Below, one piece after another: positions 1 through 9,492 of a stretch of DNA of 9,492 nt (position 1 is its first letter; every line of letters starts with the position of its first letter). This stretch comes from Candidatus Hydrogenedentota bacterium. GTDB lineage: Bacteria > UBA8481 > J006. The notes under the pieces are model-generated. The model searched no databases. It was not told the origin of the DNA and worked only from the letters and a program-made list of their open reading frames with translations. Location: positions 1 through 9,492 of the forward strand of contig RFFU01000068.1 in NCBI GenBank assembly GCA_003697085.1, written 5' to 3'. A program made the translations under genes and the position numbers.

Positions 1-521
1 CCCTTTGGTTGCCAACGGGAAAGGGATTTCAGAACAACTCTTGCTGAAACATAGTCGGGAGGTGAGGGAGACGAGGGTTTCCCGATAATTCCACGGCATT
101 CCGTTGCGAGGACGGTTTCGGACCCGCCGCGGATTGCGCATTACGGCGACCAGATAATCGAACGGATCCTCTTCCGATAATTCGGCGGTGTGAAGCAGGC
201 TCATGCAGATATCGCCGACACACGCTCCGTTCTTTGTCTTGAAGAAGAGACTGTTCTTCCGATGAAGAATCGCTTTCTTCAGAGCACGATCGCAGACGTT
301 GTTGTCCAACGGCGCCCTCGGCTCCCGAAGGAAAAGCGTCGATTCCTTCCAATGCCCGCGCCACGAGCGAGACGCCATACTTCGTAGAGAGGTCCGCGGC
401 GCGTTTCCAGAGGCGTTCCGGCATCGCCGTGCGTTTTTTCTCGCTGCCTCCGCCATTTTTCCACCTGTCGGCGCAGGGCCAGGAGCCGCCTTGCGGCGGC
501 GGGACTCGTTTTCGGTTTCAT
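1..521 (-). pseudogene. IS66-family insertion sequence remnant: small HTH-type ORF fused by deletion to the transposase C-terminus
   Basis: Three minus-strand frames together spell IS66 parts. An ATG at 521 follows a good ribosome binding site (AAAGGAGGAAG) and starts MKPKTSPAAARRLLALRR. At an A6 run (about 434-439) the sense moves to the frame reading MPERLWKRAADLSTKYGVSL, the pattern of the small HTH-type accessory protein of IS66 elements. Near 350 it moves again to a frame that stays open to the window edge and matches the IS66 transposase C-terminus: HWKESTLFLREP, PLDNNVCDRALKKAILHRKN, NGACVGDICMSLLHTAEL, DPFDYLVAVM, MPWNYRETL. The whole central catalytic part of the transposase is missing, so an internal deletion joined the two ORFs. 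The usual Glu after DNNxx is Asp here. The element cannot transpose by itself. The family call is firm; the exact breakpoint is approximate, and the 3' end lies outside the window. Confidence 0.85.
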
Positions 522-1447: not shown

Positions 1448-1739
1448 GATGAAAACGACCGCGCTTGGCGTTTGGCAGATTCCGACGAACCCTTCGCCTA
1501 TTACCGGCAAGCCGCGCTTCCATTGCCGGAATAATATCGCCGGGGAGGTGGACGAGAAGTTAGAGGGATGGAATCGGGTCGGGATTGGTAATGGTGACGG
1601 GCTTGGGGGGTGAGGCGCGTGCGGGCGTGCTGGCGGGCGGAGCGGGTCGCTGGATTTGCTTCGCCCCGGCCACCGCGCCGCGGGCAGGGGGGACGAGGGT
1701 TTGGAAAGGAAAAAATTTACAGGAAAGGAGGATCCTGAA
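1448..1739. other. Intergenic region between divergent units, G-rich, no gene recognised
   Basis: This 292-base stretch separates the minus-strand HEAT/cNMP remnant from the plus-strand exported genes. From about 1590 to 1695 it is strongly G-rich on the plus strand, with several runs of five or six G. Open frames exist in it, but none resembles a protein or has a ribosome binding site. It should contain the promoter of the 110-residue gene, yet I see no convincing -35/-10 pair. Confidence 0.5.
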
Positions 1740-2072
1740 ATGAAAAGGATCGTCTCTTGGGTGATGGCTGTCGGGTTTGTGGTGTCGCTTTCGGCGCCGG
1801 CCGTGCATGCGAGGTATGCTCCACCGAATCCTCCGCAGAAGCCGACGTTGCAGTGCAATCCGCAGGAGGTGAAGGAATTGACGGAGGAATACGTCAATGA
1901 AACCGCCGCGACGATCAATGCGCTTATGAATGCAATCACCTGTGTCTTCGGGGAACTGGGAGGAGAGAAATGCGTCGATGCCATCAACGCCGCCAACGCA
2001 TCGATGGAAAAGATGCTTCAGACGCAGGAGCAATTGAGCGAGGAACTGCAGGACTGCACGAAGACGCAGTAA
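1740..2072 (+). CDS. Small exported protein with a four-cysteine helical hairpin, function unknown
   Basis: The ATG at 1740 is preceded by AAAGGAGG at a normal distance, so this start is preferred over an in-frame ATG at 1656 that would add 28 residues before the signal peptide. The 110-residue product begins with a standard Sec signal peptide (MKRIVSWVMAVGFVVSLSAP, likely cleaved after AVHA, residue 24). A proline-rich stretch follows (26-35), then two long predicted amphipathic helices. The four cysteines are placed symmetrically at 39, 68, 78 and 106. This fits a helix-turn-helix hairpin closed by Cys39-Cys106 and Cys68-Cys78. I do not recognise the family. It is the first gene of a plus-strand run of exported proteins and sits 43 bases before the next one. 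Disulfide formation could be served by the DsbA-like protein encoded at 6103-7182. Confidence 0.8.
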   Translation: MKRIVSWVMAVGFVVSLSAPAVHARYAPPNPPQKPTLQCNPQEVKELTEEYVNETAATINALMNAITCVFGELGGEKCVDAINAANASMEKMLQTQEQLSEELQDCTKTQ

Positions 2073-2115: not shown

Positions 2116-3321
2116 ATGATCGCCGCGGCCGGTCACGCTTCGACGTCTTACGCGGCCAAGGCGAAGGCGGCGCGGTCACAGCAGCAGATTCAGCCGCAAT
2201 CCAGCGACGACCCGGTTGCGCTGCTTCTGTCGAAATGGGCCAATTATCGGTATCAGCTGAAGGTGCGGTATCCCGTCTTCAGTAGTGTCTCGGACCGCGA
2301 GTTCGTTTGGGTGATGGAGAACGAGACGGTGAACTATCTCGAGCTTCCGTTTGTGCTTCGCGTCACGGGCAACGAGCAGTTCGACAAGTTGACGCCGCTG
2401 TTGGCCGCAAAGCATTATGGCGGTTCTCCCATCGCCGCCACGGCTCAGCTTTCCGGCCCCAGCGACAAGGTTCTCGAGACGGTTTACGTGATTCCGGACG
2501 TGGCGTATCTCCAGCAGAGCAAACTGCCGGACGAGAAAAAGCAGGCGATCTACGATGCCATTGACTCGCAGGCGATAGCGAAGGAGATCACGGATCAGGC
2601 GGGGCTGGACGACGGAAGTCCAGAGGATCAATTTGCGGAAGCCTTGATCATGGCGGCCTTCGACGAAGCGATGGGAGGAGAGGAGGGGGACGCCGGCGAT
2701 CCAAGCCAGACGCAAGGAATGCTGTTGTTCATCTTCCCTGATCTGGTGGGCTTCGAGAACGGAGACTACACGGGGCGAGTTCTTTTGCGGGGCGAGCAGA
2801 TCGGCAATGAGGTGAGTTTCAAGGTCAATGCGAAACTGTTCCCGGGACCCGAGCCGATCAAGATCGATTTCTTTTATGCTCCCAGTACGTTGCTGTTCGT
2901 GATGAAGGATCTCCGCGGAAACTTGTTGGTCGAGAAAACGTTTCCCGTCCTAGATCCTATCGTCGCCAACAAGAAGATTTACTCCGACGTGGAAGGGGCT
3001 CATATTCAGATTTCATTCCCGAACGGCACGGTTTGGGACATTCCGAACGAGGGCGAGCCGGAAGTGCCGGTAAGCTATGACGACGGGATGTACACAATCA
3101 CGGCCACGGTGTCCACGGAGGAGACCGAGAACGGAAAAGGAATTCTCTTCACCAATGTGAAGATAACCCGGCCGGAAACATCCGACGTCGCGGATATCGT
3201 CTCGACGCTGAAGTCGGTGGACGGCGACGGCAACGTGATTCGCGCGATCGTGGGAGACAACGATGAGGAGACGGATTTGACGGGAGATCTGATCTGGAAG
3301 ATCACGAATTCGGTTCAGTAG
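2116..3321 (+). CDS. Hypothetical exported protein, cysteine-free, function unknown
   Basis: A 401-residue frame with steady protein-like composition. The first ATG is at 2116, but there is no clear ribosome binding site. In-frame codons upstream of it (2074-2115) encode an Arg-rich stretch ending RCRGAV, which with MIAAAGHASTSYA would look like a signal-peptide n-region and core. The true start may therefore be lost or altered. Residues 20-35 are Gln/Ser-rich. Residues about 40-240 are mixed alpha/beta with an acidic Glu/Asp/Gly patch (186-196). Residues about 245-400 look beta-rich (FFYAPSTLLFVMKDLRGNLL, YTITATVSTEET, ILFTNVKI). It contains no cysteine at all, unlike its exported neighbours. 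No family or catalytic motif is recognised. It follows the 110-residue gene closely, likely in the same transcript, and is followed by a strong hairpin at 3365. Confidence 0.75.
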   Translation: MIAAAGHASTSYAAKAKAARSQQQIQPQSSDDPVALLLSKWANYRYQLKVRYPVFSSVSDREFVWVMENETVNYLELPFVLRVTGNEQFDKLTPLLAAKHYGGSPIAATAQLSGPSDKVLETVYVIPDVAYLQQSKLPDEKKQAIYDAIDSQAIAKEITDQAGLDDGSPEDQFAEALIMAAFDEAMGGEEGDAGDPSQTQGMLLFIFPDLVGFENGDYTGRVLLRGEQIGNEVSFKVNAKLFPGPEPIKIDFFYAPSTLLFVMKDLRGNLLVEKTFPVLDPIVANKKIYSDVEGAHIQISFPNGTVWDIPNEGEPEVPVSYDDGMYTITATVSTEETENGKGILFTNVKITRPETSDVADIVSTLKSVDGDGNVIRAIVGDNDEETDLTGDLIWKITNSVQ

Positions 3322-3420: not shown

Positions 3421-4363
3421 ATGGACGAAATCACGGAGGGGGGGACCGGTGTTTCACGCGGCCGCGTGGCGTTGTTAGGCGGGCGGTTTTGTTCTGTCGC
3501 TGACGGTGCTTGTCGTTGCCTTTGCCGCTCTGGCCACTGGCGCGACGGCGGATTGTGCGGAGGAATGCAACATACAAGGGGACCGTTATGCTACATCTAA
3601 GACAGCGGAGATCTGTTCGAAGCAGCCGGATGGAACGAGTGTATAGACACCGTTAACGGTTATGACGAAAAAAAGTGGAGTGGCCCCTCTTTACTATCTT
3701 CTTGCGCAAAAGACGTACACGTTTCGCTTTAGTTTTATTAACAACGGCGCGGATCCCTGTGCGGTCTGGCGGAGGTGTAATAGATCGGACAAGGTGGGCG
3801 ATTTCGCCCTTTTTCAATCCAATAACCAGGGGGCGCATACTGGAATAACGTGGCGATATTTCGAATTAAAGCCGGGAGAAGAGGTAAACAAGGGCGAAAA
3901 GCGAACCTTTCTGACGGATTTTACGGTTCCGCCAGTTGGGTCTCGTGGCACCTTAGGACACCAGATGGGCGTTCGGGGGTGCGGAGAAGGATTTTATCAG
4001 CTGCCGAGGTTCCAATACAGTTCAGTGGCAACGGAAGACGAAGCCTCATTTATTCCTGGCAACTGCTCCTCCGGTGGAGATGATGATGACGACGATGACG
4101 ATGATGACGACGGGGGCGGCGGGGGGGATCCGGCTCCGCGCGACGGGGATCACGGTGGATCTGGGCGGTGCTCCGGCGGGTCCGCCGGCGACGCTCACGG
4201 TCGCTTCGGATAACGGAACCTGTCTTCTCCAACGTTGGGGCCTGCCGGGACGCTGGTTGCGCGTGTTGAGAGCGTTCCGAGACTGGTGTTTGGAGGCGAG
4301 TCTCTGGCGGTATCTCGTCCGCTGGTACTATGCGTTGGCGGGATGAGGGATGGAAATGGATAA
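3421..4363 (+). pseudogene. Broken gene for an exported protein with beta-sandwich-like domain and Asp/Gly linker
   Basis: An ATG at 3421 follows a good ribosome binding site (GGAGGAGAAAAG), but its frame soon loses sense. Another frame encodes a clear signal-peptide core, SLTVLVVAFAALATGATA, then ADCAEECNIQGDRYA. It meets an in-frame TAG at 3644-3646, resumes as TPLTVMTKKSGVAPLYYLLA, and continues as a domain rich in beta strands (YTFRFSFINNG, GITWRYFELKPGEEV, FLTDFTVPPVGSRG, GVRGCGEGFYQ). This weakly recalls NBR1-type Ig-like domains. A D11-G5 linker follows. At a G7 run (4121-4127) sense moves to another frame (ITVDLGGAPAGPPATLTVAS) and returns by about 4220 to the first (GPAGTLVARVESVPRLVFGG), ending at TAA 4361-4363. 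Thus it has two TAGs (3476, 3644) and several frameshifts, mostly near homopolymers. It could be a decayed gene, a phase-variable one, or sequencing error. The continuous piece 3662-4213 may be annotated as a 183-residue ORF. Confidence 0.6.
4079..4126 (+). repeat. Simple GAT/GAC and GGN codon tract encoding an Asp11-Gly5 linker
   Basis: Eleven GAT/GAC codons (4079-4111) are followed by five glycine codons (4112-4126) containing G5, with a G7 run at 4121-4127. It encodes a flexible acidic linker between the Ig-like-looking domain and a second beta-rich segment. Codons are mixed between GAT and GAC, so selection on the protein (acidic linker) is likelier than pure slippage. The G7 run coincides with the place where the reading frame breaks. 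Confidence 0.8.
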
Positions 4364-4438: not shown

Positions 4439-4462
4439 AGGAGGAAGGGAGGAAGGAAGATG
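4439..4462 (+). promoter_or_regulatory. Strong ribosome binding site and ATG leading into an in-frame TAG
   Basis: A purine-rich block with GGAGG-type cores (about 4440-4456) sits at normal distance before an ATG at 4460. The frame reads MIRGKTGRRW and then TAG at 4490-4492, directly followed in frame by VLVAGLVPLIGLIATPP. This is the basic n-region that the signal peptide of the next gene otherwise lacks, so 4460 is probably the ancestral start. A weaker AAGGCGG before the GTG at 4493 could allow re-initiation. Confidence 0.6.
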
Positions 4463-4492
4463 ATCAGGGGTAAGACGGGAAGGCGGTGGTAG

Positions 4493-5890
4493 GTGTTGGT
4501 GGCCGGATTGGTTCCGCTGATCGGGCTGATCGCGACCCCGCCGGCGGCGGCTCGAGGACGCGGCGCAAAGGCGCGGACGAGTTATCATTCGAAGGCGGTA
4601 CGTTCGGCCGAGCCCGCGCGGGGAGACCAGACGGCCGAGACGAAGGAAGACGAGTTCAATCTCCGGCCGAAGTTGACACCGGAGGAGTTGAAGGAGGAAT
4701 TGGATCCGGACGGTGACGGTGTGCCGGACCTGGAGGTCGAATTGACCCGGGAAGGACGCGTGCAGCGTTGCGTGGCGGACGTCGATGACGACGGGCGCAA
4801 CGATTTGGTTCTCGAATTTCCGACGCCGACGAGTTGGCGATACAGCGAGGACAACGACGGCGACGGGGAGTGGGATGTTGTGGAGGAAAGCAATGTCGAT
4901 CCCACGACCGGCGTGGGGCACGTGATCGAGGAACATGTCGGAAAGTATCGGCTCGAGTGGGAAGAGGTTCGGGGGGAGTTCAACAGCACAGGAGTTCTCG
5001 AACGAGATATTGATGGCGACGGAAGTTATGACGTCACGGATGTGGTGCCGATCAATCGTAACCTGTTGCAAAAGAGTGGCGGAGGCAGGCCTTCCTCGTC
5101 GAGCGGTTCCTCCGACCCCCAAAAACTCTTAAAGCGAGTGAGAAGGGATCTTTTCAACTGCATTAACGAGGGGGAAAAGGGTAAGGACGGGGAGGATTAC
5201 GTCCCGATCGAGGCGACAAAATTTTGGATGAGGACATCGAAGCCCATACAGGTCCTGAAAACCCCAAACCTGCCGACGTGCGGGGTACAACGGGTTCCAC
5301 TCCGACAGATTTTTCTTCGACAAGGATCAGGTTGTCCTGCGGACGAGCAGACGCTTGCCCACGAACTCTTGCACTTCGCTTTCGGCAGCTACAAGTGGTA
5401 TCCTGGGACGAAGAAAGAAGAGGATGCTTCAAAATTCGGACAAATCGATCCTTCGGATCAGGTCTACGGTTGTGCGGCCTATTGTTTCGGAAAAGTTGGA
5501 GATGGCATTCAGTTGGAAAAAAACAAATACAACTGTGCTCGTTGCCTCCAGACCAGCATCGATGATCCGCGATGTGCCGACGAAGCCGAACCGAACAAAA
5601 GCAGATTGGAAATGGTATGTTGCGATAATTGGTGTTACACAGCGATAGGCAGACCGGTCCATATGCAGGAAACAGACCCGACGAAATGCGATGCAAAATG
5701 CAAGGCAATGTCGGGCGGCGGGATGGCGGGTTTCGATTCGAGGTGCCATACCGGAAAGGAGGAATATCAAATACTTTGCGCTCCGGTCCGCTGTCCGCAA
5801 AAACAAACGAATAAGAAGCCGCACCCGAAGAAAACATCGAACCAGAAACTACGACGGGAGAAACTTCACGATCCCACGTTTCGGCGGTGA
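4493..5890 (+). CDS. Exported calcium-repeat, cysteine-rich protein with HELLH zinc-metallopeptidase motif
   Basis: The open frame starts with GTG at 4493 (465 residues), though the natural start is probably the ATG at 4460, separated by an in-frame TAG (4490-4492). Residues 1-20 are the hydrophobic core and cleavage region of a signal peptide. Four Asp motifs of calcium-binding type follow: DPDGDGVPD (71-79), DVDDDGRND (96-104), DNDGDGEWD (120-128) and DIDGDGSYD (172-180). A Ser/Gly linker (195-208) leads to a domain with 16 cysteines between 223 and 434. It contains HELLH (290-294), the HExxH zinc motif, and SDQVYGC (321-327), which resembles the DxxYG part of the third-ligand motif of M35 aspzincins. 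Asp322 could then be the third zinc ligand; the 27-residue gap after His294 is longer than I expect for that family. The tail (435-465) is Lys/Arg-rich. Substrate unknown. It is a likely client of the neighbouring DsbA-like protein. Peptidase activity is inferred from motifs only. Confidence 0.7.
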   Translation: MLVAGLVPLIGLIATPPAAARGRGAKARTSYHSKAVRSAEPARGDQTAETKEDEFNLRPKLTPEELKEELDPDGDGVPDLEVELTREGRVQRCVADVDDDGRNDLVLEFPTPTSWRYSEDNDGDGEWDVVEESNVDPTTGVGHVIEEHVGKYRLEWEEVRGEFNSTGVLERDIDGDGSYDVTDVVPINRNLLQKSGGGRPSSSSGSSDPQKLLKRVRRDLFNCINEGEKGKDGEDYVPIEATKFWMRTSKPIQVLKTPNLPTCGVQRVPLRQIFLRQGSGCPADEQTLAHELLHFAFGSYKWYPGTKKEEDASKFGQIDPSDQVYGCAAYCFGKVGDGIQLEKNKYNCARCLQTSIDDPRCADEAEPNKSRLEMVCCDNWCYTAIGRPVHMQETDPTKCDAKCKAMSGGGMAGFDSRCHTGKEEYQILCAPVRCPQKQTNKKPHPKKTSNQKLRREKLHDPTFRR

Positions 5891-6102: not shown

Positions 6103-7182
6103 CTATCGCAACTCTTCCTCGATCATCTCTCGTAGCTGCGCGTAGGGAATGGCTCCCGGGATCAAGCGGCCGTTGAGGTAACTGGTAGGGGTTCTCCGGG
6201 CGCCCAGTTTCTCGGCGGCTTCCTGGTCCTGACGAAGGCGATCGCGTACGGCATCACTCCCAAGACACCGCGCGAACTCTTCCATGTCCGCGCCCGATTT
6301 CACCACGATCTGACGCAGGACTTTCTCCGTGAGGGCCTCCTTGTAGGTGAAGACGACATCGTGAAAGAACCAGAAGTAGTCGGAGTTCTGTTGTGCCAGA
6401 CAGAGCGCGTAGAGGGCGGCCGTTTCGGCCAGCGGGTGATTATCGAGCGGGTGCTGGCGGAAGATGAAGCGGAGCGAGTCTCCGTACTCGGCCATCGCCG
6501 AATCCATGGTCGTCTTCCACCGGCGACAATAGGGACACTGAAAATCGGAGAAAGTGATGATGGTCAACGGTGCCGTTTCCGGTCCCAGCACCGGGCTCGG
6601 TCCCTCCGTCACGGGATACCGCAGGTTCGGCTTTCGGAAAAAGACCCGCACGGGAGTCTCGGAGGTGACCCGTTCGAGAAAGGCATCGCGGAGTTTGAAA
6701 TACTTCAGGCGTTTGAGGTAATTGTGTATCCGTTTTCGCAATCGAGGGCTGATCGAAGCGTTCTTCGGCGCCTGTTTCCGGATGAAAGCATCGATGTCGG
6801 AATCCGAGACCGAGATTTCATCGGGACTTGCGGGCAGAGCACCGGGATTCTTTTGGAGGTAGTGATCGAGGATGCGGCGGTAGAGCATCTTCTTCTTGAA
6901 GTCGTAGAGTTTCTGGAGGAGATCGTAATACGTCGCGAGGTCCTTGGAGACGAGTTCCGTATCGAGGACGATCTCACCATCGATCCAAGCCGCGACATTC
7001 GTCTCGCCCGCATCCACCTCCTCGATCACGGGTTGCGCGTTCGAGGGAAGAGCAATGAGAGCGAGAAGGAGGAGAAGGAGAAGCGGAACGGGGGCGTGAC
7101 GATGGGATCGGCGACGGTTCAGCGGCGGCCGGTCCCGAAGGGGACCCGGAGCGATCGTCGGCGTGGCACACCTTTCAGCCAT
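6103..7182 (-). CDS. SurA-like N-domain plus DsbA-type thioredoxin-fold protein, periplasmic
   Basis: The ATG at 7182 is preceded by GAAAGGAA at about nine bases; no other usual start codon occurs before the signal core. The 359-residue product has a long Arg-rich n-region (1-30), a poly-Leu core (LLLLLLLALIALPSNA) and a cleavage site near residue 49. Residues about 60-180 (VAAWIDGEIVLDTEL, then a helical stretch with LYDFKKKMLYRRILD) look like the N-terminal chaperone segment of SurA/parvulin-type proteins. Residues about 195-359 are a DsbA/Thioredoxin_4 domain with FSDFQCPYCRRW (CxxC at 216-219) and the cis-proline loop RTPTSYLNG (Pro332). The role is thiol-disulfide exchange in exported proteins, with the N-domain perhaps holding unfolded clients. 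It ends with TAG. It converges with the cysteine-rich metallopeptidase-like gene, a plausible client. The oxidoreductase call is firm; the SurA-like domain is by eye. Confidence 0.88.
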   Translation of the reverse strand: MAERCATPTIAPGPLRDRPPLNRRRSHRHAPVPLLLLLLLALIALPSNAQPVIEEVDAGETNVAAWIDGEIVLDTELVSKDLATYYDLLQKLYDFKKKMLYRRILDHYLQKNPGALPASPDEISVSDSDIDAFIRKQAPKNASISPRLRKRIHNYLKRLKYFKLRDAFLERVTSETPVRVFFRKPNLRYPVTEGPSPVLGPETAPLTIITFSDFQCPYCRRWKTTMDSAMAEYGDSLRFIFRQHPLDNHPLAETAALYALCLAQQNSDYFWFFHDVVFTYKEALTEKVLRQIVVKSGADMEEFARCLGSDAVRDRLRQDQEAAEKLGARRTPTSYLNGRLIPGAIPYAQLREMIEEELR

Positions 7183-9133: not shown

Positions 9134-9161
9134 AGGGATCGGGGATCGGGGATCAGGGATT
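9134..9161. repeat. Four tandem heptamers of type (A/G)GGGAT(C/T)
   Basis: AGGGATC, GGGGATC, GGGGATC and AGGGATT lie head to tail. The last unit overlaps the TAA stop codon (9160-9162) of the minus-strand four-helix-bundle gene. On the minus strand this reads as repeated GATCCCC directly after the gene. The array is short, exact in phase, and encodes nothing visible. Confidence 0.8.
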
Positions 9162-9492
9162 ATAATCTTCCCCGTATCTTCTTCTCCAAAACGGTAACGA
9201 GACCGCCGAGCATCTGCTTGACTTCACCATAAAGAGAGAAGAACCCCACGGTAAGTTCCTCTGATAGCAGGTTAAGATCGCGGGAAAGCAACAGGAGGGT
9301 CTCGAGTTCGGCGCCTGAAGCCTGGGCAATATTGAGGAATCGAATGTACTCTTCCGTGTTGCGGCGCTTGTGCCCATCGGCGATGTTGCACCACAGAGAC
9401 CGTGAAGTCTTTCTCAGTTCAAACGAAAGCCCGTAGCGCTCTTCCTTCGGGAAATCCCGTGTCGCCTTGTGAATCTTGAGGGACAGTTCATA
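9160..9492 (-). CDS. Four-helix-bundle protein (S23 / 23S rRNA intervening-sequence protein family), 5' end outside the window
   Basis: The minus strand is open from the window edge to TAA at 9160-9162, giving 110 residues without the start. The sequence follows the family pattern: YELSLKIHKATRDFPKEERYG (first two helices), LSFELRKTSRSLWCNIADGH (third-helix region, usually 'RRAAVSIPANIAEG'), KRRNTEEYIRFLNIAQASGA and ELETLLLLSRDLNLLSEEL (final helices). Normal members are about 115-125 residues, so only roughly 10 N-terminal residues are missing. The cysteine in LWCNIAD is where relatives have a small residue. These small pentamer-forming helical proteins were first seen within 23S rRNA intervening sequences but mostly occur alone, as here, with no rRNA around. 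Their function is unknown. Heptamer repeats overlap its 3' end. Confidence 0.85.
   Translation of the reverse strand, partial: YELSLKIHKATRDFPKEERYGLSFELRKTSRSLWCNIADGHKRRNTEEYIRFLNIAQASGAELETLLLLSRDLNLLSEELTVGFFSLYGEVKQMLGGLVTVLEKKIRGRL

What the first reader, a model, noticed from the sequence alone, without database searches (positions are those of the whole stretch)
4703..5890. Candidate new exported metallopeptidase: four Ca-type Asp repeats plus Cys-rich HELLH domain
Four DxDxDG motifs, a Ser/Gly linker, then a domain with 16 cysteines, HELLH and SDQVYGC. The pair HExxH plus DxxYG resembles the zinc site of M35 aspzincins, but the spacing, the many cysteines and the calcium-type front half do not match any family I know. 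It could be a secreted protease or a toxin-like effector.
Basis: partly seen in the sequence, partly recalled or inferred. Interest (0 to 1): 0.6.

Follow-up and report, generated by a model that had tools for sequence, protein, structure and literature searches.

The report
Exported cysteine-rich zincin-like protein family
This bacterial gene encodes an exported protein that joins calcium-type repeats to a cysteine-rich, probably zinc-dependent protein-cutting domain.

Summary
ORF 4493-5890 (+) has four DxDxDG motifs, a Ser/Gly linker, then a 259-aa domain with 16 Cys, HELLH and SDQVYGC. No Pfam, NCBIfam or PDB sequence matches that domain convincingly, and two GTDB scans found no relative. 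Whole-genome searches did find two homologues, in one phylum of large-genome bacteria. Homology is far above shuffles that keep all Cys and HELLH: hhalign 59.1 against at most 28.3 of 300. The three share the HExxH, an Asp at the position of D322, six Cys and a DxRC motif. Both homologues look like exported lipoproteins. So this is a real, small, undescribed family. Best reading: a secreted or surface Asp-type zincin with H290/H294/D322 on zinc and E291 as base. Membership in M35 is not supported: Y and G of GTxDxxYG are not conserved, and similarity to an M35 profile does not exceed decoys that keep the HExxH block. Both AlphaFold models were too poor to test the zinc site. Caveat: as assembled, an in-frame TAG (4490) cuts the signal peptide from its best start (ATG 4460), and the neighbouring gene is broken too.

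The parts
4441..4492 (+). purine-rich ribosome-binding site, ATG 4460, signal-peptide n-region MIRGKTGRRW, in-frame TAG stop at 4490-4492
   Evidence: sequence and translation
4493..5890 (+). open reading frame, 465 aa from GTG (465 codons plus TGA)
   Evidence: codon-usage score best in this frame over most of its length
4493..4579 (+). hydrophobic h-region and AxA-type end of a signal peptide (VLVAGLVPLIGLIATPPAAARG)
   Evidence: translation; cleavage inferred
4703..5023 (+). four DxDxDGxxD calcium-type repeats (4703-4720, 4778-4795, 4850-4867, 5006-5023)
   Evidence: DUF6802 E=7e-5, below its cut-off
5075..5113 (+). Ser/Gly linker SGGGRPSSSSGSS
   Evidence: translation
5159..5575 (+). conserved core of the Cys-rich domain: C223, W245, E285, H290/E291/H294, G298, D322, C327, C331-F332, C348, C351, DxRC (358-361)
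   Evidence: alignment with two homologues, same invariants with three other MAFFT modes
5360..5374 (+). HELLH, putative zinc-binding and catalytic motif (H290, E291, H294)
   Evidence: HExxH conserved in all three family members
5453..5473 (+). SDQVYGC; D322 is the best third-ligand candidate
   Evidence: Asp and Cys conserved, Y and G not
5576..5887 (+). Cys-rich tail, then Lys/Arg-rich end, weakly conserved
   Evidence: alignment A2

Best explanation
The gene encodes an exported, disulfide-rich protein of a small undescribed family. It is probably a zinc metallopeptidase working as an Asp-type zincin. Calcium-type DxDxDG repeats form a rigid extracellular stalk or binding module, a flexible Ser/Gly linker follows, and the C-terminal domain binds one zinc ion through H290, H294 and D322, with E291 as general base, to cut extracellular or periplasmic protein. 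Six conserved cysteines probably stabilise the fold outside the cytoplasm. Shown: sequence anatomy, homology of three proteins, and conservation of HExxH, Asp and Cys. Inferred: zinc binding, D322 as third ligand, peptidase activity, calcium binding and export.
For: Two homologues in the phylum of G029 (L090 in G416, L091 in G567). The profile of the two against this domain gives hhalign probability 95%, score 59.1; 300 shuffles keeping all Cys and HELLH reached at most 28.3. HExxH, D322, C223, C327, C331, C348, C351 and DxRC are invariant under four MAFFT alignment modes. Both homologues begin with lipoprotein-type signals (GLGSAAC, LLPSSC). The DxDxDG count is far above chance. A DsbA-like thiol oxidoreductase gene lies next door, which fits but does not prove disulfide formation.
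Against: No model or solved structure supports the fold. The third ligand rests on conservation in three sequences, with a variable H-to-D spacing (17, 28, 31). The homologues have an additional His after HExxH (GVGH, GYH) that could serve instead in them but is absent here. As assembled the gene has a TAG in its signal peptide, so it may be poorly expressed or decaying.
Confidence: 0.6

Rival explanations
1. It is a divergent member of peptidase family M35 (aspzincin/deuterolysin).
For: Local resemblance TLAHELLHF to TLVHEMSHF, and DxxYG in this one sequence.
Against: hhalign to an M35 profile aligns only the HExxH block. The score of 24.6 lies below the mean (25.9) of shuffles that keep TLAHELLHF. 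The family profile scores 32.4 against a decoy mean of 31.6. Y and G of the motif are not conserved. No PF14521 match.
Confidence: 0.12
2. It is a Glu-type zincin (M78/IrrE-like or similar) with E312 or E313 as third ligand.
For: The weak top Pfam match is Peptidase_M78, E 0.05-0.24, covering HELLH to the EED segment.
Against: No Glu after HExxH is invariant under all four alignment modes; D322 is. The match is far below the Pfam cut-off (11.7-13.9 bits against 22) and absent in the homologues.
Confidence: 0.12
3. The gene is decaying or carries sequence errors, so no functional product is made from this copy.
For: TAG at 4490 inside the signal peptide; neighbour 3449-4343 with two TAGs and an apparent frameshift at a G-run; IS66 remnant at 4-456. 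A start at GTG 4493 lacks the positive n-region.
Against: The 465-codon frame is otherwise open and keeps all family residues. Codon usage is good in the front half, though weak in the rear half. GTG 4493 directly after the TAG could serve by re-initiation.
Confidence: 0.25
4. TAG is read through as an amino acid in this organism, so the three in-frame TAGs are sense codons.
For: All three in-frame stops at 3476, 3644 and 4490 are TAG.
Against: TAG is an ordinary stop genome-wide (36 of 194 long frames, no longer downstream reading). No pylS above cut-off. No CTA tRNA and no excess of TAG after ribosome-site ATGs in 1.15 Mb sampled.
Confidence: 0.03

Closest known systems
Peptidase family M35 (deuterolysin/aspzincin, PF14521)
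   Same: HExxH on a TLxHExxHF-like block, an Asp downstream, exported, several Cys
   Different: No GTxDxxYG (Y, G and GT not conserved), H-to-D spacing 17-31 against 9 in M35 proteins collected here, no profile similarity beyond HExxH
Mini Asp-zincins (PF06262/DUF1025, Acel_2062; PMC3890501)
   Same: Asp as third ligand is an accepted zincin arrangement
   Different: Those have HExxHxxGxxD with close spacing, are small and have no Cys-rich part; no Pfam match here
DUF6802 / DxDxDG repeat proteins
   Same: Front half matches DUF6802 at E=7e-5 and resembles DxDxDGxxD repeat proteins such as the one in L002
   Different: Below the Pfam cut-off (23.1 against 27 bits); the repeat protein seen in L002 has no HELLH domain
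Peptidase_M78 (PF06114)
   Same: HExxH region, best though insignificant Pfam hit
   Different: No conserved Glu ligand; extracellular Cys-rich domain

Membership tests
M35 aspzincin | HExxH | tested here: met
   HELLH 290-294, conserved in homologues
M35 aspzincin | GTxDxxYG with Asp as third ligand (PMC3282736) | tested here: not met
   DxxYG only in the window protein; homologues have DQIIG and DRVNA, no GT
M35 aspzincin | profile similarity (PF14521 or M35 alignment) | tested here: not met
   no hit; hhalign not above decoys
M35 aspzincin | deuterolysin fold | tested here: inconclusive
   models of mean pLDDT 34 and 41
zincin (clan MA, any) | conserved HExxH with Glu | tested here: met
   invariant in all three members
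zincin (clan MA, any) | third metal ligand C-terminal to HExxH | tested here: inconclusive
   D322 invariant, but no structure
zincin (clan MA, any) | zinc binding and proteolysis | not testable with these tools
   needs purified protein
Peptidase_M78 | Pfam score above cut-off | tested here: not met
   11.7-13.9 bits against 22
DUF6802 | Pfam score above cut-off | tested here: not met
   23.1 bits against 27
EF-hand/calmodulin | helix-loop-helix around DxDxDG | not tested
   only a weak PDB sequence match (E 0.006) resting on Asp-rich loops

The most novel reading that the evidence does not exclude
A new metallopeptidase family of the Asp-zincin kind, with its own disulfide-rich subdomain and a third-ligand loop of very variable length, used as an exported or lipid-anchored protease in a few bacteria of two phyla.
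Probability: 0.45. Interest if true: 0.5.

Novelty: new variant of a known kind. Interest (0 to 1): 0.36.

Why it matters
If active, it would found a new peptidase family with three known members, and define its motif: HE[LM]xH, then D, then C with CF four residues on, CAxC and DxRC. The loop between HExxH and the presumed Asp ligand varies from 17 to 31 residues, a direct test of how freely the third zinc ligand of zincins can be re-sited. It also shows that an apparent orphan in a sparsely sampled phylum had relatives that fast pattern scans missed.

Tried and rejected
Pattern scans of GTDB species contigs and IMG/VR, and tblastn of plasmids and phages, found no relative. The single-sequence search of 386 diverse genomes gave only weak hits: the few checked by eye were not supported (HExxH proteins without the rest of the motif, or no HExxH in the matched frame); the others were not followed. 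L094 looks like Cys-rich noise. L096 does not cover HExxH, and L097 (with two stops) was not read. Single-sequence AlphaFold models were too poor to search with, so no fold search was run. An alignment with the two homologues was not submitted for structure prediction, because the tool does not list loci from the genome search as allowed input. TAG recoding was considered and not supported.

Full report
Observation. The frame 4493-5890 is open for 465 codons. It holds DxDxDG at residues 71, 96, 120 and 172, a Ser/Gly linker at 195-207, HELLH at 290-294, DQVYG at 322-326 and 16 cysteines after residue 206. Shuffles show that neither the repeats nor the HExxH plus DxxYG pair is a composition effect. 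Codon usage favours this frame over most of its length, strongly in the front half and weakly in the rear half.

Start of the gene. Upstream, ATG 4460 follows GGAGGAAGGAAG and opens MIRGKTGRRW-TAG-VLVAGLVPLIGLIATPPAAARG, a textbook signal peptide cut by TAG 4490. The neighbouring exported-protein frame, 3449 to about 4343, has TAG at 3476 and 3644 and an apparent frameshift after an Asp/Gly run. TAG is a normal stop in the rest of the genome. No pyrrolysine synthetase passes its cut-off. No CTA tRNA and no excess of early TAGs was found in 1.15 Mb. So this is most likely gene decay, a rare allele or an assembly error. Initiation at GTG 4493 remains possible.

Known families. The C-terminal domain has no significant match in Pfam, NCBIfam or PHROGs, nor any PDB sequence match. 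Two pattern scans of GTDB species contigs found nothing. The only genome of the same order in the set lacks it.

The family. A search of 195 genomes of the phylum of G029 (genomes to 12.7 Mb; I would guess Myxococcota, not shown) gave two homologues. G416 has LHEMLHLATGVGHADPTESDPSDQIIGCATACF...CAACIGPSVGACDPRC. G567 has FHEMMHGLLGYHPD...YTDRVNACEAWCF...CTCAACLESKVCDERC. Pairwise BLAST E is 3e-10 and 9e-7, aligning D322 with D in both. hhalign gives 95% probability and score 59.1, against at most 28.3 for 300 shuffles that keep every Cys and HELLH. Under four MAFFT modes the same residues are invariant: C223, W245, E285, L288, H290, E291, H294, G298, D322, C327, C331, F332, C348, A349, C351, D358, R360, C361. 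Both homologues start with lipoprotein-type signals. The G416 protein has Asp-rich segments before the domain, but their similarity to the window's repeats is not significant. A profile search of 195 and 386 genomes found no further convincing member. The family is therefore rare in what could be searched.

Function. HExxH with its Glu conserved across phyla argues for a zincin. Of the acidic or His residues after it, D322 and D358 are invariant in every alignment; D322 is nearer and sits in the best-conserved block. The distance from the second His of HExxH to it is 28 here, 17 in G416 and 31 in G567. I therefore propose an Asp-type zincin. Zinc binding, catalysis and calcium binding are inferences.

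Not M35. I collected 31 M35 proteins from whole genomes and compared profiles. The window domain scores 24.6; shuffles keeping TLAHELLHF average 25.9. The family profile scores 32.4; decoys keeping the HExxH block average 31.6. The M35 motif GTxDxxYG (PMC3282736) is not conserved in the family.

Structure. Two single-sequence AlphaFold runs gave mean pLDDT 34 and 41.

Front half. DxDxDGxxD repeats of about 25 residues match DUF6802 below its cut-off and resemble a repeat protein in G058 (L002). They are a known kind of repeat.

Noticed in passing
window 4-456 (-): Remnant of an IS66-type transposase (PF03050, E 2.7e-11), C-terminal part only in this frame.
   Followed up: partly
window 3449-4343 (+): Broken gene for an exported protein with an Asp/Gly run: in-frame TAGs at 3476 and 3644 and an apparent frameshift at a G-run near 4120.
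   Followed up: partly
window 6103-7182 (-): DsbA-like thiol oxidoreductase with N-terminal extension (Thioredoxin_4, E 2.6e-27).
   Followed up: no
window 1735-2072 and 2116-3321 (+): Two exported-looking proteins without any convincing family match, in the same orientation upstream of the finding.
   Followed up: no
window 9160-9492 (-): Four-helix-bundle protein of the 23S rRNA intervening-sequence type, cut by the contig end.
   Followed up: no
L058: Exported Cys-containing protein with IIHEALHVAGQLEN...PSQIDQAIKDAC, weak M35 hit (E 2e-4), a possible more distant cousin.
   Followed up: no
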